The notes under the pieces were generated by a model. It searched no databases. It saw only the letters and a program-made list of their open reading frames with translations, and was not told the origin of the DNA. Shown in pieces: positions 35,671-47,735 of a DNA stretch of 59,948 nucleotides (position 1 is the first letter of the stretch; the number at the start of each line of letters is the position of its first letter). Both the position numbers and the translations under genes were made by a program. Origin of the DNA: an uncultured Lachnospiraceae bacterium (GTDB taxonomy: Bacteria > Bacillota > Clostridia > Lachnospirales > Lachnospiraceae); contig CACYMQ010000035.1 in NCBI GenBank assembly GCA_902775555.1, positions 1 through 59,948 of the forward strand, written 5' to 3'.

Positions 35671-37212
35671 ATGGGCAATACCATAGACAAATTCTATGAT
35701 TTTCTGGAGCGTATGGTGAGTGTGACACATGACGCCGGAGGATTTGACAGGGAGAAGTATGTCCGGCTCGTGCAGGAGATCTGCGTATATTATGATCTGG
35801 CAAAGGGTGACGTGGAATTCTATAAGAATGTTTCATATGAGAAAAAAAAGGACGGCATCGTCTACTGTGACTTCGACAACGGGAAGGCGGACCGGATCCT
35901 GGTTCAGACCAGAGTTGTATCTGCAACCCAGGCTGTGATCAAGGGAACCATTTATGTTTCCGAGGATAGAGGAACCGTGAGTGATACGGATAAGCTGCGG
36001 ATCGGGCTGCTTCTGAATCTGATCCTGGCTTTCGTAAGCAGGCGTCGTCTGCTGGTCAGTCTGGAACAGTTCGGATTTACGGATCTGGAAGGATATCCGA
36101 ATTTCCGGGCCTTTGCACGGTATCTTGAGATCCATAACGATAGAGACCATTTAAAGGATAAATGTGCATTTCAGTATGATCTGCACAATTTCACCATGGT
36201 GAATGAAGAGATCGGCCGTGAGAACGGAAATGTGGTCATGAGGAACTATCATCGCATGGTTGCGGAAGCCTGCGGTGAAGAGGGGATCGTATGCCGGCTG
36301 GGAGGCGATAAGTTCATCGGAGTCTATCCGAGGAACAGAGAAGAGAAAGTTCTGGAGATCTTTTCAGGAGTTCCGGTCACTTTTACGGGGCTCGAGGAAC
36401 GGAGGATCTTCCTGTCCGCGGCTGTGGGGATCTTTCGTATTCCGGAGGGATTTGTGCTTCGGAATAATGGGGATGTCATGGACAAGATCGCCATGACAGG
36501 TGCGATCGCAAAGAAGCAGGAGGACGGGGCCGTCGTTTTCTATGATGAGAAGATGAAGGCCATGAGGGGACATATGCACTGGGTGCAGAGCAAGTTCCGA
36601 AGGGCTCTGGAAGCGGAAGAATTCCGGGTTTACTATCAGCCGAAGGTGAATATCCATACCAAAGAGATCGTGGGAGCCGAGGCTCTGTGCCGCTGGTTCC
36701 ATAAGGATCAGCTGATCCCGCCCCTGGATTTTATACCCATCCTGGAGCAGAATACGGATATCTGCGATCTGGATTTCTATATGCTGGATCATGTCTGCAG
36801 GGATATACGAAGACGGCTGGACGAAGGAAGGCATGTGGTCCGGATCTCCGTGAATCTTTCAAGAAAACACCTGGTGGATGTGGATCTTCAGGAACATATC
36901 ATGAGCATTATCGACCGGTATGACATACCGCATCAGTTTATCGAGATCGAACTTACCGAGACCACAACGGACGTGAGATTCCGTGATCTGAAGAGGGTTG
37001 TCAGCGGTCTGCAGGAACAGGGGATATCCATGGCAGTGGATGACTTCGGTATAGGCTATTCCTCCCTGAACCTGATACGTGAGATCCCCTGGGACGTACT
37101 GAAGATCGACAAGTGTTTCGTACCCCAGGATGATGACCAGTCAAGCAGTATCACAAATGTAATGTTCCGGCACGTGGCATTTCGACAGGCCGTTACCGGT
37201 GGAAGAGTTTGA
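35671..37212 (+). CDS. GGDEF-EAL protein with degenerate GGDEF and truncated EAL domain
   Basis: 513 residues, cytoplasmic. Residues 1-125 form an unrecognised sensory domain. The GGDEF motif is replaced by GGDKF (211-215), so cyclase activity is doubtful. The EAL domain has EAL at 337-339, ELTETTTD, and VDDFGIGYSSLN, but after KIDKCFVPQ and ITNVMFRHV the reading frame shifts and stops. The expected segment with the catalytic AEGVE-type motif is missing, and the normal family ending reappears out of frame at 37178-37243. An internal deletion of roughly 150 nt is inferred. It is unlikely to hydrolyse c-di-GMP as it stands. Confidence 0.85.
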   Translation: MGNTIDKFYDFLERMVSVTHDAGGFDREKYVRLVQEICVYYDLAKGDVEFYKNVSYEKKKDGIVYCDFDNGKADRILVQTRVVSATQAVIKGTIYVSEDRGTVSDTDKLRIGLLLNLILAFVSRRRLLVSLEQFGFTDLEGYPNFRAFARYLEIHNDRDHLKDKCAFQYDLHNFTMVNEEIGRENGNVVMRNYHRMVAEACGEEGIVCRLGGDKFIGVYPRNREEKVLEIFSGVPVTFTGLEERRIFLSAAVGIFRIPEGFVLRNNGDVMDKIAMTGAIAKKQEDGAVVFYDEKMKAMRGHMHWVQSKFRRALEAEEFRVYYQPKVNIHTKEIVGAEALCRWFHKDQLIPPLDFIPILEQNTDICDLDFYMLDHVCRDIRRRLDEGRHVVRISVNLSRKHLVDVDLQEHIMSIIDRYDIPHQFIEIELTETTTDVRFRDLKRVVSGLQEQGISMAVDDFGIGYSSLNLIREIPWDVLKIDKCFVPQDDDQSSSITNVMFRHVAFRQAVTGGRV

Positions 37213-37243
37213 AAGCCGGCTGGACTCCGGAAGTTACGAATAG
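37178..37243 (+). pseudogene. Out-of-frame C-terminal remnant of the EAL domain
   Basis: In the frame shifted by one base relative to the preceding gene, the sequence reads HFDRPLPVEEFESRLDSGS and ends with TAG at 37241-37243. FxRPLPxxEFE is the standard end of EAL domains of this type. It overlaps the last codons of the truncated gene. Confidence 0.8.
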
Positions 37244-37276
37244 AAGACCGGCATTCCCGCCGGTTGGGAGGATAAA

Positions 37277-37711
37277 ATGGAATATCGGTTTTACGGATGG
37301 CAGCAGGCGACGGTTCCTGCAGTCAGTGCGGAATACCCCGGGATCCTGACTCCGCGCGGTCTCTATGACGCACTATGCTCCGTATGGTGTGAGTATACAT
37401 GTGCGCCCCGGCTCCGGGAGGAATGGAGCATGGAGAATCAGACCCTCGGTCAGTGCTCCATAACCGCATTTCTTGTACAGGATATCTTCGGAGGAGAGGT
37501 CTATGGGATCCTTCGTCCCGGAGGTAATTATCATTGCTACAACGTTGTGGGTGATGCTGTATTCGATCTGACTTCGGAGCAGTTCGGGGATGAGATACTT
37601 TCTTACCGGGACAATCCCCTTCAGACGAGGGAGGAGCATTTCCGGAAGGAAGAGAAACGTCAGCGTTATGAATACCTGAGGAAAAGCCTGAAGGACATGC
37701 TAATGAAATAA
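37277..37711 (+). CDS. Small YunG-like protein
   Basis: 144 residues, no signal peptide or membrane segment. The conserved order is Cys in LGQCSITAFLVQD, His in GNYHCYNVV and Asp in VFDLTSEQF. This resembles YunG-type proteins of Bacillus and has the Cys-His-Asp layout of a papain-like fold, though activity is not proven. It lies 65 nt after the EAL gene and 14 nt before the LacI-EAL gene, possibly in one transcript. I cannot assign a role. Confidence 0.6.
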   Translation: MEYRFYGWQQATVPAVSAEYPGILTPRGLYDALCSVWCEYTCAPRLREEWSMENQTLGQCSITAFLVQDIFGGEVYGILRPGGNYHCYNVVGDAVFDLTSEQFGDEILSYRDNPLQTREEHFRKEEKRQRYEYLRKSLKDMLMK

Positions 37712-37725
37712 TAGATGGTGACACT

Positions 37726-40700
37726 ATGACAGAGAAACAGATCGCAGTGCTGATGGCGCAGCCGGATGAGCCCTATCAGCAGGAACTGATCAGGGGAATG
37801 ATGGAGAAGGCAGAGGAATTCAATTGCCGGATCACGGTCTTCTCCATGTATATCAAATATCAGAATAATGAAGAACGTGAGGTAGGGGATTCGAATATCT
37901 ATAATCTGATCCCGTATCAATTATTTGATGCCGTCGTTCTTTTCTCGGATCTGATACAGACCCCCGGAGTGGAGCGGAAATTGCAGGAGAAGATCCATCG
38001 GGAGTTTCACGGCCCGGTGATCTGTGTCGATATGGACAGCGAGTATTTTTACAGCTTCTGGACGGACGGATATGACTCGGTGTATGCGGAGGTCTCTCAC
38101 CTCATCGAGGTACATCGGAAGAAGGATATCGCTTATCTTACGGGACGAAAGAATCATGTACATTCCGTACGGCGCCTTCAGGCTTATCAGGATGCCATGG
38201 AGGCCCATGGTCTCAGCGTGCGGAAGGACAGGATATTCTATGGGGATTTCTGGTATACCAGCGGAACGGGCTGTGCGGAGGTACTGCTGAGACACAGAAA
38301 CGAACTCCCGGAAGCTGTGGTCTGTGCCAATGACTGTATGGCGATCGGACTCGCAGAGGCGCTGGATAAAAACGGAGTGAAGATCCCGAAGGATATCCTG
38401 GTGGCGGGATACGGAACATCCAAAGAAGGACAGGCAAGTCCCACTTCCCTGACCTCCACATATATACCGGCTCCCTACTACGGAGGGTATGTTCTGGAGA
38501 CTGCAATGAAAATGCTTCGGGGAGAGGAGCCGGAAGAGCCCCATGCGGAAGGCGCACTCTTCGTGGGCGAAAGCTGTGGCTGTCATCCGAAGATGGATTT
38601 CCTGAATACCAGGAGAGCAGGATGGAGGACCAAGGATTCCGAGGAAGGACATGAGTCGATCCATAATCATCTTCTCGAGGATCTCATGCTGGCTACCTCT
38701 TTCAAAGAACTGCTCCACACAGCCTATGAATCCATTCATTACCTTCGGGAGATCCGGGGGCTGGATATCTGTCTGGATCCGGTATGGATGAATGCGGAAC
38801 AGTTGATACAGCAGGGCTTCCGGAACGTGGGTTATCCGGAGCAGATGGTGAGTGTCCTTTCCTATGATTCGGAGGACAGCTCCCGCTGCAAGGTGGGATT
38901 TGATCATTTGTTCCCCACATCGACTCTCTTTCCGAACCGGGAAGAGGAGGGACGGCTCACCTATGTAATGCCCCTCTTCTTTGAGGAGAAATCCTTTGGA
39001 TATGCACTCCTTCGATATACGGAGGAGTCCGCAGGATATGAGTCAGTGACCAGACTCTGGTTGAATACACTGATGCAGGGGATCGAAGCCTTCAGAAGAG
39101 AACTGATCATCCATCATCTGGAGAAACAGAATGCTGTCTATCCGGTAAAGACCTACTCCGCAAATACCGGTGATGATACGGTGGATACCAGTGGTCTTTC
39201 AGATGAAGAGATCGAGGAGATGGATGAAGTAAAGCGGATCCTGGACGAGAATCTGCTGACCTATTATTTCCAGCCCATCGTGAATTCCATAGACGGAGAG
39301 ATCTATTCCTATGAAGCACTGATGCGGTCCGGCACGGAGAAGAAGATCTCACCCCTGTCTATCCTGCATTACGCGGATCTTCTCCACAGGCTGCCCGACG
39401 TGGAGAAGGCGACCTTCCGGAATGTCCTCGATATATATGCCAATCACAGGAAATGGTTCGGAGAGAAAAAGGTCTTTATCAACAGCATTCCGGGCTGCGA
39501 ACTGAAGTACAGTGATTTTGTCGGCGTGGAGCAGCAGCTCATGGAAAATGCGGATCATGCGGTTGTTGAGCTGACGGAGCAGGCGGAACTCACGGACGAG
39601 AAACTGGGCTTCATGAAAAGCCAGTATAAGAAGCTGGGCGTGCAGATGGCTGTCGACGATTACGGGACCGGCTATTCCAATGTCAGCAATCTGCTCCGGT
39701 ATATGCCGGATTACGTGAAGATCGACCGGTCGCTTCTTTCGGAGATACAGAACAGCCTTCAGAAGCAGCATTTTGTAAGAGAGATCATAGATTTCTGTCA
39801 TTCAAATGAGATCATGGCCCTTGCCGAGGGAGTTGAAACGAAGGAGGAACTGCGGACGGTGATCCTCCTGGGCGCGGATCTGATCCAGGGATACTATGTC
39901 GCACGACCGAATCCGGAGGTCCTTCAGTCGGTAAACAGCCAGGTAAGAATGGAGATCAGCCGGTTCCATCAGGAGAAAGAGGATGGCTCTCTGGATGAGA
40001 CCTATATGGCCGGTAGTACCAACCGGATCTCCCTCTCCAGACTGGCAAGGGAGAAGAAGTCCACGATCCTGATCGGTGACAAGGATGCAACCTTCCGGGA
40101 TATCACCATCGTGGGAACTCCGGGGGAAGAAGCCGGAATCCACATCGAGGTTATGGAAGGCTTTGACGGAAGGATCACTCTGGAAAATGCATGCCTTTCG
40201 AATATCAAGATGAGACCCTGTATCCTCATGGCGGAAAACACTCACGTGACCCTGTGTCTGAACGGGGAGAATCGTATGACCGGCGGAGGGATCCGTGTTC
40301 CGGAGGATTCCGGGCTTGCGGTGGAAGGAGATGGAAGCCTGAAGATCTCTCTGGCAGGGTCGGAACTGTATGCTATCGGTAACTCCGCTGACAGAGGACA
40401 CGGAAATCTGGAATTCTATCAGGACGGTGAACTGATCATAGAAGCGGACGGACAGACCACCATAGGCATCGGTTCCGGTATGGGTGGAAATACGGCGATC
40501 CATAAAGGAAAGTACACGATCCGTATGAGCGGAGACGAGGGTGTGGCTATCGGATCCCTCAGGGGGAACCAGCCCATTAAGATCCATGACTGTGATATGA
40601 AGATCTCCACCAAATTCTATAAGGGTGCTTATATCGGAAATGTGGAAGGGGATGCTTTCGTGAAGATATGGAGATCCCTGGTCCGCTTTAACTGCAGCGG

Positions 40701-41046
40701 AGGGATGGTTTCCGTCATCGGGTCCCTGTCCGGAAGCATGGCGGAGATTGAAATGAATGATCTTGCCGTTTACATCGATATCAGTTCGGAGCACAGTACC
40801 GGCATCGGCAGTCTGCTGGGAGCCACCAGGATCCGTTTCGGTTCCGCCGGCTTCAATTATAAAGGTGCGGGAAGACAGGCGCTGGTATACGGAGGCGATG
40901 GTGAGGATACGGAGATCGAGCTGAACAGCGTGGATGTGGTAGTCGATCTTCATTCCGATCTGGGGAGATTGACAAATGCCCCGAAGGAAAAGATAAAGAT
41001 GTCCTATGGACGTTCGGTTGTGACCATAAACGGACAGGAACAGTAA
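37726..41046 (+). CDS. LacI-type sugar-sensor / EAL phosphodiesterase / beta-solenoid protein
   Basis: 1106 residues, soluble, no signal peptide and no DNA-binding helix. Residues 1-290 are a LacI/GalR-type ligand-binding domain (VVCANDCMAIGLAEALDKNG, ILVAGYGT, GESCGCH). A linker domain to about 500 is followed by an EAL domain with YEALMRSG near 530, VDDYGTGYSNVSN, and LAEGVETKEEL near 700, so it should degrade c-di-GMP. Residues 760-1106 are short Gly/Asn-rich strands repeating about every 20 residues (VAIGSL, AYIGNV, SVIGSL, TGIGSL), which suggests a right-handed beta-solenoid. Tail to tail with a sensor of the same type carrying GGDEF. Confidence 0.85.
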   Translation: MTEKQIAVLMAQPDEPYQQELIRGMMEKAEEFNCRITVFSMYIKYQNNEEREVGDSNIYNLIPYQLFDAVVLFSDLIQTPGVERKLQEKIHREFHGPVICVDMDSEYFYSFWTDGYDSVYAEVSHLIEVHRKKDIAYLTGRKNHVHSVRRLQAYQDAMEAHGLSVRKDRIFYGDFWYTSGTGCAEVLLRHRNELPEAVVCANDCMAIGLAEALDKNGVKIPKDILVAGYGTSKEGQASPTSLTSTYIPAPYYGGYVLETAMKMLRGEEPEEPHAEGALFVGESCGCHPKMDFLNTRRAGWRTKDSEEGHESIHNHLLEDLMLATSFKELLHTAYESIHYLREIRGLDICLDPVWMNAEQLIQQGFRNVGYPEQMVSVLSYDSEDSSRCKVGFDHLFPTSTLFPNREEEGRLTYVMPLFFEEKSFGYALLRYTEESAGYESVTRLWLNTLMQGIEAFRRELIIHHLEKQNAVYPVKTYSANTGDDTVDTSGLSDEEIEEMDEVKRILDENLLTYYFQPIVNSIDGEIYSYEALMRSGTEKKISPLSILHYADLLHRLPDVEKATFRNVLDIYANHRKWFGEKKVFINSIPGCELKYSDFVGVEQQLMENADHAVVELTEQAELTDEKLGFMKSQYKKLGVQMAVDDYGTGYSNVSNLLRYMPDYVKIDRSLLSEIQNSLQKQHFVREIIDFCHSNEIMALAEGVETKEELRTVILLGADLIQGYYVARPNPEVLQSVNSQVRMEISRFHQEKEDGSLDETYMAGSTNRISLSRLAREKKSTILIGDKDATFRDITIVGTPGEEAGIHIEVMEGFDGRITLENACLSNIKMRPCILMAENTHVTLCLNGENRMTGGGIRVPEDSGLAVEGDGSLKISLAGSELYAIGNSADRGHGNLEFYQDGELIIEADGQTTIGIGSGMGGNTAIHKGKYTIRMSGDEGVAIGSLRGNQPIKIHDCDMKISTKFYKGAYIGNVEGDAFVKIWRSLVRFNCSGGMVSVIGSLSGSMAEIEMNDLAVYIDISSEHSTGIGSLLGATRIRFGSAGFNYKGAGRQALVYGGDGEDTEIELNSVDVVVDLHSDLGRLTNAPKEKIKMSYGRSVVTINGQEQ

Positions 41047-41121: not shown

Positions 41122-43080
41122 TCATCCGGCAGCGCCCGGTTTGGGCTGCTCCTTCTTCAGACGTTTTATTGTATACATCTTATCATCGGCAGTCTTCAGA
41201 GCCTTCATGATATCCAGGTCATCTCCCAGTGTGGCCGTGTAGATACCGGTACTTGTGGTGATGGTATAGGGAAGATCGGAATGAAGGTTGAAGTCCTCCA
41301 GAAGGAAATCGATCTGCTTTGCAATGGCCTCCGCATCACATTCTCCGATGATGACGGAGAACAGTTCGTCGCCGCCGAAGCGGGCGGAGAGCGCTTCCTT
41401 CGGGCAGGATTCCGTCAGTGCCGAAGCGACTGCCGCTATGGCACGGTCTCCTTCCGCATGACCGAAATTATCATTGATATATTTCAGCCCGTCAAGGTCC
41501 GACATGATCATGGTAAAGGGCTTTCCCTGATTCTCCTCTTTGTTCCGGACCTCCTGAAATACCTTCTGGAAACCGAGACGATTATATAATCCGGTAAGTG
41601 CATCATGCTTATACATATCATCCATCTGTTTCAGAAGATGTCTCTGATACTGCAGGTTGATGAAGGTTCCGATCCCCATGCTGATGGCATTTGTCACAAT
41701 GGACGCACGTGAGTAATCGGTAATGGTGAAGTCCGGGAAAAAGAAGCACTCGAATCCGATGGGCTTGTTCATGTAATCCAGCGCACTGAAGATCAGAGGA
41801 TATTTCGAATCTGTCAGCTTGATGATCCGGTCGCGGTAATTCCCTGCCAGAACGGTTTCCTTTGTATTTACTTCCGTATCGAAGAACAGTTCCTTTGGCA
41901 GCGGAGCTTCATCCTGCCGTCCTGTTTCCTGATATTTCATCTCCGCGTATTCGGAATCGAAGAGCAGATGGAAGTCGGGAGTGTGATCCCGGTCAGACTC
42001 AGTCATGAAATAATTATCCTTCAGCTCAAAGATGTTACGGTTTATGATCGTAAGGGAGTACCAGGTCTTATAATTGAGGATATGGGATGCCATTTCCCAC
42101 AGACTGCTGCTGGTCTCCATATTTGAAGAGATCTCATACAGGATCCGCATATCGTCCTGATGTCGATAGAAGTTGTTGTTAAAACTGGAAACCAGGCTCT
42201 GGGTAGAGGATGCGTGGCTTTCACAGCCACAGGATTCGTTCGGGATGAAAAACGGTTCGATGAAAGTGTCCTGTATCTCTTCTCCGGCGGCCGCACGAAG
42301 CGCCAGTTTGCCGGATGCCTCCGCAAGCAGGGGAATGACACAGCTGGCAGTCGTGATCTTGGGCGTGGTGAAGAATACTTCATCGTAGCCGTCGAAGCCC
42401 GAGACAAGTACATCTTCGGGAACCCGGTATCCGGCTTTTTGAAGCGAATCGATGACGTTGATGGCCATGATATCATTTGCACAGATGATCGCATCCGGGA
42501 TCACATCCCTCTTCAGGATCTTCTGCATGGCTACCTTTGTGGGATCGGCCCAGAAGTGTCCGTAACTCAGCATGCTGTTATCAAAAGGGATCCCGTTTTC
42601 GGCCAGTACCTTTTTGAAGATCTCGATCCTCTGATCCGAGAAGAAATTATCCGGCAGACCGGCCATGATATGCGGGCGCTTTACCTGATGATGCTCGATG
42701 ATGTGACGGGTAACGGTTTCAAAACCCGAGGCATAGTCGAAACTGACCTGGGTCGTGCCTTCGTAGTGCCCGTCCACAATGATGACGGGGACATCCGCAT
42801 CTTTTGCCCTGTCAATGATGCGATTGGAAATGGTATGACTCTTGATCTTTTCATCCAGGATGAGGATACAGTCCAGATCCTCATACGGAAGAAGATCGAA
42901 GATATAGGTTTCCGCCGGGATCATTTCTTCTTCCCAATAAATGTCATTATTGATCGTGAAGATCATAAGGGCACAGGAATCCTCCTGCAGAGTCCGGTTC
43001 AACAACTGAATATAGTTGAAGATCTGCAGATCATAGATCCTTGACGCACATAATGCAATTAGTTTTTTTCCATTTATCAT
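41122..43080 (-). CDS. LacI-type sugar-sensor / GGDEF diguanylate cyclase
   Basis: 652 residues, soluble. Residues 1-285 are a LacI-like ligand-binding domain without a DNA-binding helix (AIICANDIMAINVIDSLQKAG, ending NESCGCES, the same ending as in the EAL neighbour). A middle GAF-like region follows, then a GGDEF domain from about 490 (KHDALTGLYNRLGF) with active-site FGGDEL at 568-573. It should make c-di-GMP in response to an internal ligand, probably a sugar. It ends 76 nt from the end of the LacI-EAL gene. A weak ribosome site (GGGATC) precedes the ATG. Confidence 0.88.
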   Translation of the reverse strand: MINGKKLIALCASRIYDLQIFNYIQLLNRTLQEDSCALMIFTINNDIYWEEEMIPAETYIFDLLPYEDLDCILILDEKIKSHTISNRIIDRAKDADVPVIIVDGHYEGTTQVSFDYASGFETVTRHIIEHHQVKRPHIMAGLPDNFFSDQRIEIFKKVLAENGIPFDNSMLSYGHFWADPTKVAMQKILKRDVIPDAIICANDIMAINVIDSLQKAGYRVPEDVLVSGFDGYDEVFFTTPKITTASCVIPLLAEASGKLALRAAAGEEIQDTFIEPFFIPNESCGCESHASSTQSLVSSFNNNFYRHQDDMRILYEISSNMETSSSLWEMASHILNYKTWYSLTIINRNIFELKDNYFMTESDRDHTPDFHLLFDSEYAEMKYQETGRQDEAPLPKELFFDTEVNTKETVLAGNYRDRIIKLTDSKYPLIFSALDYMNKPIGFECFFFPDFTITDYSRASIVTNAISMGIGTFINLQYQRHLLKQMDDMYKHDALTGLYNRLGFQKVFQEVRNKEENQGKPFTMIMSDLDGLKYINDNFGHAEGDRAIAAVASALTESCPKEALSARFGGDELFSVIIGECDAEAIAKQIDFLLEDFNLHSDLPYTITTSTGIYTATLGDDLDIMKALKTADDKMYTIKRLKKEQPKPGAAG

Positions 43081-43336: not shown

Positions 43337-43360
43337 ACGTAAATTGGAGGGGGTTTGTGT

Positions 43361-44626
43361 ATGAAACCATTCAGGAATGCCTATGAAGCGATCAAAAGAT
43401 TGCTTTCCAAAATATTCTCAAAGGAGGAACAGGGGGTAGAAAACCAGCCCGGACCGAAGGCCGAACCGACACCGGAACCTGCCCCGAAGCCTGCTCCGGA
43501 GCCGAAGAAGGAGACAAAACCGGAGCCGAAGAAGGAGGAAAAGCAGGAGCCGAAGAAGGAAGCAAAGCCGGAGCCGAAGAAGGAAGCAAAGCCGGAGCCG
43601 AAGAAGGAAGCAAAACAGGAGCCGAAGAAGGAGGCAAAGCCGGAGCCGAAGAAGGAGGCGAAAGCAGAGCCCAAGAAGCCGGCGCAGAAGAAGTCCGAAA
43701 AGACTGCGGAAGAGGATATGGAGGCATATGTTCGGGAGTCCGAGCGTAAGGAGCAGGCAGCCTATGCGGCGGAGGCAAAGCGTCGTGCAGAGCGTGCTGC
43801 CAAGCGTGAAGCGGAGGAGAAGAAAGCCGAACAGAGAGCCGCCAGAAGAGAGATGGAAGCACAGGCCGGTATGGGTGTAAGGCGTGTGACCGATCCTGTA
43901 ACAGGTGAAGAGGTTCCTCTCGGAGCACTTCCTTCCAGAGCCACATATCTTAAAAAGTACAGCAAGATCGCATCCACATCCGACGATGTGATCCTTTCCG
44001 TCAATTCCATTCTCAGACATCCGGATATGCCGAAGAATATCGTTATCCTGGGTAAGAACGGATTCGGTACCGTAAGAGTCGGTGAGGATTTTGCCCGCAG
44101 CTTCTATGCAATGGAGCTGGTAAAATCCGATAAGATCGCAAAGATCAGGGCAAAGCAGCTGAACAAGATCAGTCTGGAGAAGCTGGACGGTCTGAAGGGC
44201 GGATGTCTGATCATCGAGAACGCAGGTCTGGTTCAGCCGGAGAAGCTGGTTGAGGTCATTAAGAATGCGGAACCCGATGTGAACGATTATGTAGTGATCC
44301 TGACGGGCGAGATCGACTCCCTGGCGCGTTTCTTCGAGGACAATCAGGAGATCGTGGATCAGTTCATTTATCTGGTCGGTATCCACAAGATCAAAGAGAA
44401 GGGAATGCTCTCCCTGGCACGCGGCTATATCAAGGAGAAGGGTTATACCGCAGACAAGCCTGTATATGAGCAGCTGAAGGAATCCCTGCAGGGAATGGAG
44501 GCCGGAAATATCGACCGGTTCCTCGAGTTCCTGGATAAGGTTATGGAGACTGCCGACAGCCGTGAAGCCTCCGAGGGCAACGGCGGACGTCACGAAGTAC
44601 TTGTAGAGGATGTACGTCGTGCATAA
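43361..44626 (+). CDS. EPKK-repeat protein with degenerate AAA-type ATPase domain
   Basis: 421 residues. After a short amphipathic start (NAYEAIKRLLSKIFSK) come eight copies of an 8-residue repeat EPKKEAKP (47-110), then a long charged helix rich in Ala, Glu, Arg (to about 175). Residues 185-421 look like an AAA module of the SpoVK/CbxX class, but the Walker A reads GKNGFGTV (231-238) without Lys-Thr, and the Walker B region reads GCLIIENAG, with Asn in place of Asp-Glu. It probably does not hydrolyse ATP and may act as a scaffold. GGAGGG precedes ATG43361. Function unknown. Confidence 0.65.
   Translation: MKPFRNAYEAIKRLLSKIFSKEEQGVENQPGPKAEPTPEPAPKPAPEPKKETKPEPKKEEKQEPKKEAKPEPKKEAKPEPKKEAKQEPKKEAKPEPKKEAKAEPKKPAQKKSEKTAEEDMEAYVRESERKEQAAYAAEAKRRAERAAKREAEEKKAEQRAARREMEAQAGMGVRRVTDPVTGEEVPLGALPSRATYLKKYSKIASTSDDVILSVNSILRHPDMPKNIVILGKNGFGTVRVGEDFARSFYAMELVKSDKIAKIRAKQLNKISLEKLDGLKGGCLIIENAGLVQPEKLVEVIKNAEPDVNDYVVILTGEIDSLARFFEDNQEIVDQFIYLVGIHKIKEKGMLSLARGYIKEKGYTADKPVYEQLKESLQGMEAGNIDRFLEFLDKVMETADSREASEGNGGRHEVLVEDVRRA
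43499..43690 (+). repeat. Eight 24-bp coding repeats (EPKK octapeptide)
   Basis: Units begin GAGCCGAAGAAGGA and repeat every 24 bp, with the last one diverged. The minus strand has a matching open frame rich in FGSGFASF, which is a by-product of the repeat. Confidence 0.85.
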
Positions 44627-46271: not shown

Positions 46272-47735
46272 ATGCATAAAAAATTTACATCCTTATTCGT
46301 AGCACTTATTCTGGCAGGTGCACTGGCAGCTTGCGGAACGGCATCAGCAGAAAACACAGGTTCCTCCGGCGGAACCACGTCGGCTGCAGCATCGTCTGCG
46401 GCAAAGAGCGGGACCACGGAAGGAAGTGAGACCACGGAAGGAAGCAGCACGAAGAAAGATGAAGCTTCCGGATCCGAAACCACAGCCGCAAAGGGAGAGG
46501 AAGAGACCCAGGCGGTAACGGCGGTGACCGCTTCGGGAGGAATGATCGATGTCTCCGATCTTTTCTCGGAGAGAGATCTGAAGCAGACGGCGGATACGAC
46601 GGATGCAGAGACCCTCACGGTAAGTGACGGGCAGGATATCAGCATTACGAAGGAAGGCGTATATGTGATCAGCGGCAGTGCTTCCAATGTGACCATATCC
46701 GTGGAAGTGACGGATGAAGAGAAGGTCCAGCTCGTTCTTGACGGAGTCAGCATCACAAATGAAACGAAGCCCTGCATCTATGTAAAGAACGCGGACAAGG
46801 TTTTTGTTACGACCACCGGGACGGAAAGTAGCCTTTCCGTGACGGGAACCTTTGTGGCTGACGGAGAGACAAATACGGACGCAGTGATCTTCGCAAAGGA
46901 TGATCTGGTACTGAACGGACAGGGAACTCTGAATATCAGTTCTACGGACAATGCCATCAGCTGCAAGAACGATCTGAAGGTTACAGGCGGAACCTATAAT
47001 ATCAGCTGCAGCCACAGTGCGCTGGAAGCGAAGGATTCCATTTCCGTGGCAGACGGTACCCTGAATATCACCTCCTGCGTGGACGGTCTTCATGCAGAGA
47101 ATGACGATGACAATTCCACCGGACAGATCGTACTTCTTGCCGGGACCATGAATATCAAGGCATCGGATGATGCGATCCATGCAACCACGATCCTCCAGGT
47201 GAATGGCGGGACCTATGATATCACGGCGGCTGAGGGACTGGAAGCCACCGTCATCCAGATCAATGACGGACAGCTGTCCATCTCCGCTTCCGACGACGGG
47301 ATCAATGCAGCAAAGAAATCCGATTCCTACACGCCGAAGGTGGAGTTCAACGGCGGGTACACCAAGGTCGTCATGGGAGCAGGAGATACGGATGGTGTGG
47401 ATTCCAACGGTGATATCATCGTGAACGGCGGGACCATTGACGTATCCGGACAGTCTACCTTCGATTTTGACGGAACGGGAACCGTAAATGGAGGAACCGT
47501 GATCGAGAACGGCACAGAGACCAATACCCTGACAAACCAGATGATGGGCGGCGGCATGCACGGCGGCGGTATGCGCGGCGGCGATATGCAGGGCGGAGCG
47601 GACGGTACCATGCCGGAAAGACCGGAAGGAACAGACGGTAGCATGCCGGAAGGAAAAGGCGGTGATATGAACGGCGGCATGTTTCAGCGTGGAGGAAAAG
47701 GCGGACGGGGTATGAAACCCGGTACCGAAGAATGA
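46272..47735 (+). CDS. Cthe_2159-like beta-helix carbohydrate-binding lipoprotein
   Basis: 487 residues. A lipobox signal (ALILAGALAACGTAS) is followed by a Ser/Thr/Gly linker of about 65 residues. Residues 90-420 are repeated short strands with Asp, Asn and Gly turns (ISITKEGVYVISGS, VQLVLDGVSIT, LNGQGTLNISS, IKASDDAIHA, ISASDDGINAA), the pattern of the Cthe_2159 polygalacturonate-binding beta-helix. The end is rich in Gly and Met. In other Clostridia such proteins sit beside VTC and DUF4956 genes, here 17 kb away. It is likely on the cell surface. Confidence 0.85.
   Translation: MHKKFTSLFVALILAGALAACGTASAENTGSSGGTTSAAASSAAKSGTTEGSETTEGSSTKKDEASGSETTAAKGEEETQAVTAVTASGGMIDVSDLFSERDLKQTADTTDAETLTVSDGQDISITKEGVYVISGSASNVTISVEVTDEEKVQLVLDGVSITNETKPCIYVKNADKVFVTTTGTESSLSVTGTFVADGETNTDAVIFAKDDLVLNGQGTLNISSTDNAISCKNDLKVTGGTYNISCSHSALEAKDSISVADGTLNITSCVDGLHAENDDDNSTGQIVLLAGTMNIKASDDAIHATTILQVNGGTYDITAAEGLEATVIQINDGQLSISASDDGINAAKKSDSYTPKVEFNGGYTKVVMGAGDTDGVDSNGDIIVNGGTIDVSGQSTFDFDGTGTVNGGTVIENGTETNTLTNQMMGGGMHGGGMRGGDMQGGADGTMPERPEGTDGSMPEGKGGDMNGGMFQRGGKGGRGMKPGTEE

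What the first reader, a model, noticed from the sequence alone, without database searches (positions are those of the whole stretch)
37726..41046. EAL phosphodiesterase carrying a C-terminal beta-solenoid and an N-terminal LacI-like sensor
The last ~350 residues of this cytoplasmic c-di-GMP enzyme are short Gly/Asn strands with recurring IGSL/IGNV turns, a beta-solenoid pattern normally found on secreted polysaccharide-binding proteins (one such protein is encoded at 46272). A solenoid attached to an EAL domain inside the cell, together with a sugar-sensor domain, suggests a phosphodiesterase that reads or docks on a polymer or assembles into a scaffold. I know of no described system of this kind.
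Basis: partly seen in the sequence, partly recalled or inferred. Interest (0 to 1): 0.78.

Follow-up and report, generated by a model that had tools for sequence, protein, structure and literature searches.

The report
Signalling enzyme with beta-solenoid tail
A gut-type bacterium makes an internal enzyme that breaks down a signalling molecule and carries, at its end, a coiled beta-strand rod related to rods found on secreted proteins; the combination recurs in related bacteria, and what the rod does there is not known.

Summary
ORF 37726-41046 encodes 1106 residues with no signal peptide or membrane span: LacI-type sensor, GAF-like middle, EAL phosphodiesterase with its catalytic residues, and a C-terminal beta-solenoid (about 759-1106; AlphaFold pLDDT 94, pTM 0.91, ~28-residue rungs). 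No Pfam family covers it. Profile comparison ties it to secreted 'GIGG' beta-helix proteins (98.8%, E 5.7e-17) and more weakly to the Cthe_2159-type protein at 46272. It is not a one-off: 3 copies in this genome, 52 of 61 genus genomes, 28 of 397 family genomes, two further families of the class. In 46 of 53 ORFs from the family and class searches it follows an EAL domain. The sensors before it vary (LacI, LacI-GGDEF, GNAT, GGDEF, or a short leader), and kin in the same EAL clade lack it. So it is an optional, conserved module tied to the EAL, not to the sugar sensor. I favour a protein-docking role over reading a polysaccharide; neither is tested. My paper searches found no description of this architecture; EAL enzymes with accessory domains are a known kind.

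The parts
37732..38586 (+). LacI-type periplasmic-binding-protein-like sensor, residues 3-287, without the LacI helix-turn-helix
   Evidence: Pfam Peripla_BP_3 E 6e-21, Peripla_BP_1 E 1.1e-17; no HTH family at E <= 1
38587..39210 (+). middle region, residues 288-495, probably GAF-like
   Evidence: 5 of 22 relatives match GAF_2, best E 8.8e-4; the window copy does not; no solved relative by profile below E 0.4
39217..39930 (+). EAL phosphodiesterase domain, residues 498-735
   Evidence: Pfam EAL E 1.3e-50; E530, N586, E615, D644, D645, E701, Q721 invariant in 22 proteins and K665 in at least 90%, likewise in 38 aligned EAL domains; aligned to RimA 6ifq; that these are the catalytic positions is recalled
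39931..39999 (+). helical linker between EAL and solenoid, residues 736-758
   Evidence: helix in both models, with low confidence at the start of the first
40000..40365 (+). N-terminal cap of the solenoid, residues 759-880 (GEN..GGI.VP..S.L..EG.G.L)
   Evidence: model; part of the stretch shared with secreted GIGG beta-helices
40366..40968 (+). seven solenoid rungs of 28-31 residues with IG[S/N] turns, residues 881-1081
40969..41043 (+). C-terminal end of the solenoid, residues 1082-1106
   Evidence: model
41122..43080 (-). convergent gene: LacI-like sensor plus GGDEF diguanylate cyclase, 652 aa, a possible opposing enzyme
   Evidence: GGDEF E 1e-29, Peripla_BP_3 E 1.3e-15; a 60-63% identical homologue lies beside the solenoid gene in L004 and L079 and a 34% one in L106; none was found in the fetched stretches of L005 and L082

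Best explanation
A cytoplasmic c-di-GMP phosphodiesterase with a C-terminal beta-solenoid related to the beta-helix repeats of secreted Clostridia proteins. Supported by calls: the fold (by prediction), the kinship, the EAL linkage, the changing N-terminal modules, absence in some kin, purifying selection. Inferred: a small ligand, probably a sugar, binds the LacI-type lobe; the change passes through the GAF-like region to an EAL dimer that cleaves c-di-GMP; the solenoid is a separate rod that neither senses nor catalyses but holds the enzyme on a protein partner or on other copies of itself, so that c-di-GMP is drained locally. This would suit a genome with 16 EAL matches, where enzymes need a way to keep their signals apart.
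For: Fold: pLDDT 94, pTM 0.91. Kinship with secreted beta-helices: HHalign 98.8%, E 5.7e-17; 20 column shuffles at most 0.7%; these secreted proteins were themselves found by the solenoid profile, at up to E 3e-15 for one genome. EAL linkage: 34 of 36 ORFs in the family search and 12 of 17 new ORFs in the class search. Varying N-terminal modules. Optional module: of 44 EAL places above 300 bits in 397 family genomes, 34 carry it (one only its cap, one cut by its contig) and 10 do not. EAL tree of 91 rows (55 with, 36 without): 5 changes of the label against a mean of 28.6 in 500 shuffles. EAL plus solenoid modelled together: pLDDT 91.3 but pTM 0.62, so no fixed packing is predicted. Solenoid dN/dS 0.08-0.16 in the 3 of 5 pairs with usable dS. 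Own genome: 16 EAL matches, one a contig-edge fragment, 3 with solenoid; 5 c-di-GMP-I riboswitches, no PilZ.
Against: No partner is identified and no binding test exists; docking is argued by elimination. The reversed secreted profile still scores 38.8% and E 3e-4 and the reversed solenoid profile 29.8%, so part of the likeness is composition and repeat pattern. The low pTM comes from a monomer with 53 rows and could hide a dimer contact. Rungs 3-7 vary more (mean column entropy 2.42-2.67) than positions 21-135 of the cap (1.92-2.23) (inward and outward faces not separated), which weakens the case for one conserved partner. Foldseek found no match at E <= 0.001: best 0.024 in PDB and 0.008 in BFVD. 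The ligand is a guess.
Confidence: 0.45

Rival explanations
1. The solenoid self-assembles, end to end or side by side, and makes the phosphodiesterase a cluster or filament that raises or switches its activity, as cytoplasmic bactofilin solenoids gather their clients (recalled).
For: Predicted cytoplasmic beta-solenoid with regular rungs; three copies in this genome could co-assemble; EAL activity depends on dimer state (recalled).
Against: No bactofilin family among the 25 of 26 Pfam families shown for 47 members; nothing here tests assembly.
Confidence: 0.2
2. The solenoid binds an intracellular polysaccharide such as glycogen, or an incoming oligosaccharide, and tunes the enzyme.
For: Kinship with secreted beta-helices and, weakly, with Cthe_2159, which Pfam calls carbohydrate-binding; LacI-like sensor.
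Against: Of seven columns with at least 70% Phe, Trp, Tyr or His, three lie in the rungs (residues 882, 892, 930), all in the first two rungs. The module does not follow the sugar-type sensor. Binding by the secreted relatives used here is not shown in any call.
Confidence: 0.15
3. The solenoid is a passive tail left by a domain fusion.
For: Absent from kin in the same EAL clade; diverges faster than EAL (36-37% against 60-64% identity between the window protein and its two paralogs); dN/dS above that of EAL in all 3 usable pairs; one copy (L074) keeps only about 130 residues.
Against: dN/dS 0.08-0.16 is far below 1; EAL-linked copies in two further families of the class; present in 52 of 61 genus genomes.
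Confidence: 0.1

Closest known systems
Secreted 'GIGG' beta-helix proteins (two of three used here match Pfam PF18889 Beta_helix_3)
   Same: Cap motif and first rungs align over 149 columns
   Different: Those proteins carry no EAL and look secreted; the window domain reaches no Pfam family at E <= 1 and sits in a cytoplasmic enzyme
Cthe_2159 carbohydrate-binding family (PF14262), as at window 46272
   Same: Weak alignment of 63 cap columns, above its controls
   Different: Lipoprotein-like secreted protein; 2 of 47 solenoid members match the Pfam model weakly, best E 0.0032
EAL phosphodiesterases such as RimA (PDB 6ifq)
   Same: EAL domain and catalytic residues, profile E 5.7e-39
   Different: The matched 257-residue chain has no LacI sensor and no solenoid
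YkuI-type EAL proteins with the accessory domain YkuI_C
   Same: YkuI_C is an intracellular domain found in c-di-GMP enzymes (passages of PMC8846402); its place after the EAL is recalled
   Different: YkuI_C is CACHE/PAS-like, not a solenoid
LacI-GGDEF and LacI-GGDEF-EAL proteins of the same bacterial family
   Same: Same sensor type; the EAL ones belong to the same EAL clade
   Different: End 15-24 residues after the EAL domain
Bactofilins (recalled)
   Same: Cytoplasmic beta-solenoid
   Different: No sequence link found among the families shown

Membership tests
EAL c-di-GMP phosphodiesterase | EAL domain with metal- and substrate-binding residues | tested here: met
   identity of the positions recalled
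EAL c-di-GMP phosphodiesterase | hydrolysis of c-di-GMP to pGpG | not testable with these tools
   needs purified protein
LacI-type ligand-binding domain | Peripla_BP_1 and Peripla_BP_3 above the curated cut-off | tested here: met
   64.9 bits against 22.2 and 75.7 against 26.5
LacI-family transcription factor | N-terminal helix-turn-helix | tested here: not met
   no HTH family at E <= 1; the protein starts in the sensor
Beta-solenoid | stacked rungs of regular length | tested here: met
   by prediction: strands and 27-31 residue spacing
Right-handed parallel beta-helix | handedness and a significant fold match | tested here: inconclusive
Pfam Beta_helix_3 (PF18889) | score over the curated cut-off | tested here: not met
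   window domain: 0 families at E <= 1; not among the 25 of 26 families shown for 47 members
Secreted GIGG beta-helix superfamily | profile-profile homology above controls | tested here: met
   98.8%, E 5.7e-17; shuffles at most 0.7%, reversed 38.8%
Cthe_2159 (PF14262) | homology to the family | tested here: inconclusive
   2 of 47 members, best E 0.0032; HHalign 69.7% with the 46272 protein
Bactofilin | match to its Pfam model | tested here: not met
   absent from the 25 of 26 families listed at E <= 1 for 47 members
Polysaccharide-binding protein | binding of a glycan | not testable with these tools
   only column conservation examined

The most novel reading that the evidence does not exclude
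A secreted adhesin-type beta-helix was taken into the cytoplasm of Clostridia and turned into an assembly rod for c-di-GMP enzymes: phosphodiesterases with interchangeable sensors are gathered through a common solenoid into clusters or filaments that create local c-di-GMP sinks.
Probability: 0.15. Interest if true: 0.78.

Novelty: new variant of a known kind. Interest (0 to 1): 0.52.

Why it matters
How cells with a dozen or more c-di-GMP enzymes keep their signals apart is an open question; local signalling through direct interactions is one explanation (abstract of PMC5635695). Here a recurring, separable, well-predicted module marks much of one EAL clade, with natural solenoid-free sisters as controls, so a localisation role can be tested directly. 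If confirmed, it also shows a secreted-type beta-helix put to use inside the cell.

Tried and rejected
Rejected: a chance Gly/Asn-rich stretch; a one-genome oddity or assembly fusion; a domain tied to the sugar sensor; a known c-di-GMP output domain (no Pfam match to the solenoid; none among the 25 of 32 NCBIfam families shown).

Led nowhere: PDB sequence profile of the solenoid, one hit at E 0.47, and of the middle domain, one at E 0.43; Foldseek in PDB and BFVD, nothing at E <= 0.001; Rfam on the window, no match. Paper searches gave no description of an EAL-solenoid protein; I saw listings only, capped at 8 of 105 and 8 of 121 papers, and the library holds open-licence papers only. A ninth search was for Cthe_2159. 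I saw passages of PMC8846402 and the abstract and outline of PMC5635695, no whole paper. Solenoid dS was saturated in 2 of 5 pairs, and is 0.9-1.2 in the other three, so those ratios are rough. Inward and outward faces of the rungs could not be separated because no coordinates are given.

Full report
Observation. The ORF 37726-41046 on the + strand gives 1106 residues. Pfam places a LacI-type sensor at 5-284 and EAL at 502-728 and nothing on the last 350 residues; none of the 25 of 32 NCBIfam families shown reaches them. The protein has no helix-turn-helix match, no signal-like start and no membrane-like stretch. Six IG-type turns recur every 27-31 residues, more pairs than in any of 20000 shuffles, although glycine autocorrelation alone has no clear peak at 28. 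AlphaFold2 on 47 relatives predicts a regular all-beta coil with pLDDT 94.0 and pTM 0.91.

Relatives. Three copies of the C-terminal domain lie in this genome. A profile of five sequences finds it in 52 of 61 genomes of the genus and 28 of 397 of the family, own genome included in both. A profile of 47 finds it in 17 of 391 genomes of the class, including two further families with EAL-linked copies, and in 4 of 398 of the phylum, three of which had been found before; the fourth is marginal (E 5e-4). These samples overlap. In some searches at most five candidates per genome were scored, so counts are lower bounds.

Linkage. One search lists 36 distinct ORFs; 34 have EAL before the domain. The other two (L075, L077) are weak, E above 1e-6. 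One search adds 17 new ORFs: 12 are EAL-linked and five are not. Of these five, L113, L115 and L119 start with signal-like sequences by eye and L114 is a contig-edge fragment; L116 was not recovered at E 0.01. Linkage was not checked for every genus copy; the genus copies that I fetched as longer stretches and examined (window, L004-L007, L078-L085) all have EAL.

Architectures. Proteins scanned one by one show LacI-EAL (window, L046), LacI-GGDEF-EAL (L053, L063, L065, L066, L073, L074, L112, L118), GNAT-EAL (L062, L076), GGDEF-EAL (L064; L070, L071 and L110 with GGDEF scores below the curated cut-off), EAL with a short leader (L052, L055, L057, L106) and EAL with an unassigned N-terminus (L067, L069). 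L059 runs off its contig and is left out.

Origin. The domain aligns with secreted GIGG beta-helix proteins over 149 columns at 98.8% and E 5.7e-17. The seven rows come from three proteins, which the solenoid profile itself had found (best E 3e-15, 2e-13 and 1e-10, each for one genome), so this comparison extends that search rather than standing apart from it. The reversed secreted profile gives 38.8% and E 3e-4, the reversed solenoid profile 29.8% and E 6e-4; 20 shuffles stay at or under 0.7%. Two of the three proteins carry Pfam Beta_helix_3. The neighbour at 46272 is a Cthe_2159-type protein with a signal-like start and a weaker link, 69.7% against 0.5% reversed. The own genome has one open frame of 1513 residues with Beta_helix_3 repeats below the cut-off.

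One EAL clade. An EAL profile made from solenoid proteins scores 253-420 bits in 58 rows with solenoid (55 distinct) and about 100 or less in 19 rows without. That set was picked mostly by the solenoid, so I searched with the EAL of the clade in the same family sample (at most seven candidates per genome scored): 83 places pass E 1e-45, 44 of them above 300 bits; 34 of these are the solenoid ORFs (L074 with only the cap, L076 cut by its contig) and 10 are not. I fetched 20 of the 49 places without a solenoid match, including all 10 high scorers. Nine of the ten end 15-24 residues after EAL; the tenth, L149, is cut by its contig. The tree of 91 EAL domains needs 5 changes of the label, at least 4 forced by well-supported branches. 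One gain and four losses would fit, but the tree cannot tell gain from loss. Solenoid-free proteins sit beside solenoid-bearing ones: L143 and L147 with L058 (starred branch), L141 and L142 with L053 (support 94/65, not starred). L141, L142 and L147 are LacI-GGDEF-EAL proteins.

Selection. In the three pairs with usable solenoid dS (0.9-1.2), dN/dS is 0.083, 0.161 and 0.152 for the solenoid, against 0.065, 0.057 and 0.072 for EAL and 0.096, 0.108 and 0.084 for the part before EAL. The domain is kept, more loosely than the EAL.

Mechanism. The EAL carries the full set of catalytic residues (positions recalled). The EAL-solenoid model keeps high local confidence with pTM 0.62, as expected for two domains without a fixed arrangement. 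Conserved aromatic or His columns are few in the rungs, three of 201 positions. The solenoid travels with EAL and not with one sensor. I therefore favour a tether to a protein partner, with self-assembly next and glycan binding third. This ranking is inference. The own genome has 5 c-di-GMP-I riboswitches over the cut-off and no PilZ match; read by eye, genes after four of the five look like surface proteins or a type IV pilin, and no clear gene was seen after the fifth, so c-di-GMP output here is probably adhesion.

Neighbourhood. A convergent LacI-GGDEF cyclase follows at 41122-43080. A 60-63% identical gene lies beside the solenoid gene in L004 and L079 and a 34% one in L106; none was found in the fetched stretches of L005 and L082. 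An opposing pair with related sensors is plausible and not shown.

Known or new. A review of c-di-GMP sensing says that domains of the periplasmic-binding clan are prevalent in these enzymes while only one has been studied there, and names the LacI-like one as a putative solute sensor (passages of PMC8846402). No paper in the listings of eight searches joins EAL with a beta-solenoid. I file it as a new variant of a known kind: an EAL phosphodiesterase with an accessory module, not described in what I searched, that recurs across families.

Noticed in passing
window 35671-37212 (+): GGDEF-EAL ORF whose EAL domain stops at Pfam position 188 of 236 and then reads unrelated sequence; by eye the last part of EAL is not in the three forward frames of 37050-37330.
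   Followed up: partly
window 37277-37711 (+); L079 7362-9506 (-): YunG-family ORF alone in the window; in G402 the syntenic gene is a YunG-PAS-GGDEF-EAL fusion, so YunG may serve as a sensor module of c-di-GMP enzymes and the window copy may lack an enzyme part.
   Followed up: partly
L062 3918-6281 (-) and L076 2537-3859 (+): GNAT acetyltransferase fused to EAL plus solenoid (L076 ends at its contig edge), a combination I do not recall.
   Followed up: no
L126 172-3183 (-) and L131 631-2307 (-), own genome: Two other EAL proteins of this genome with long tails after EAL (436 and 281 residues) that match neither the solenoid nor a Pfam family at E <= 0.01.
   Followed up: no
own genome, 5 places: c-di-GMP-I riboswitches; by eye, genes after four of them look like a cell-wall-binding repeat protein, a type IV pilin, a surface locus and a repeat-rich secreted protein; no PilZ domain in the genome.
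   Followed up: partly
window 43355-44626 (+): 423-aa protein with a KPEP-rich N-terminus and no Pfam match above cut-off, 82% identical near hisS in L004 and L079.
   Followed up: no
L074 4215-4604 (-): Solenoid reduced to about 130 residues, its cap, in G004; a possible intermediate of loss.
   Followed up: no
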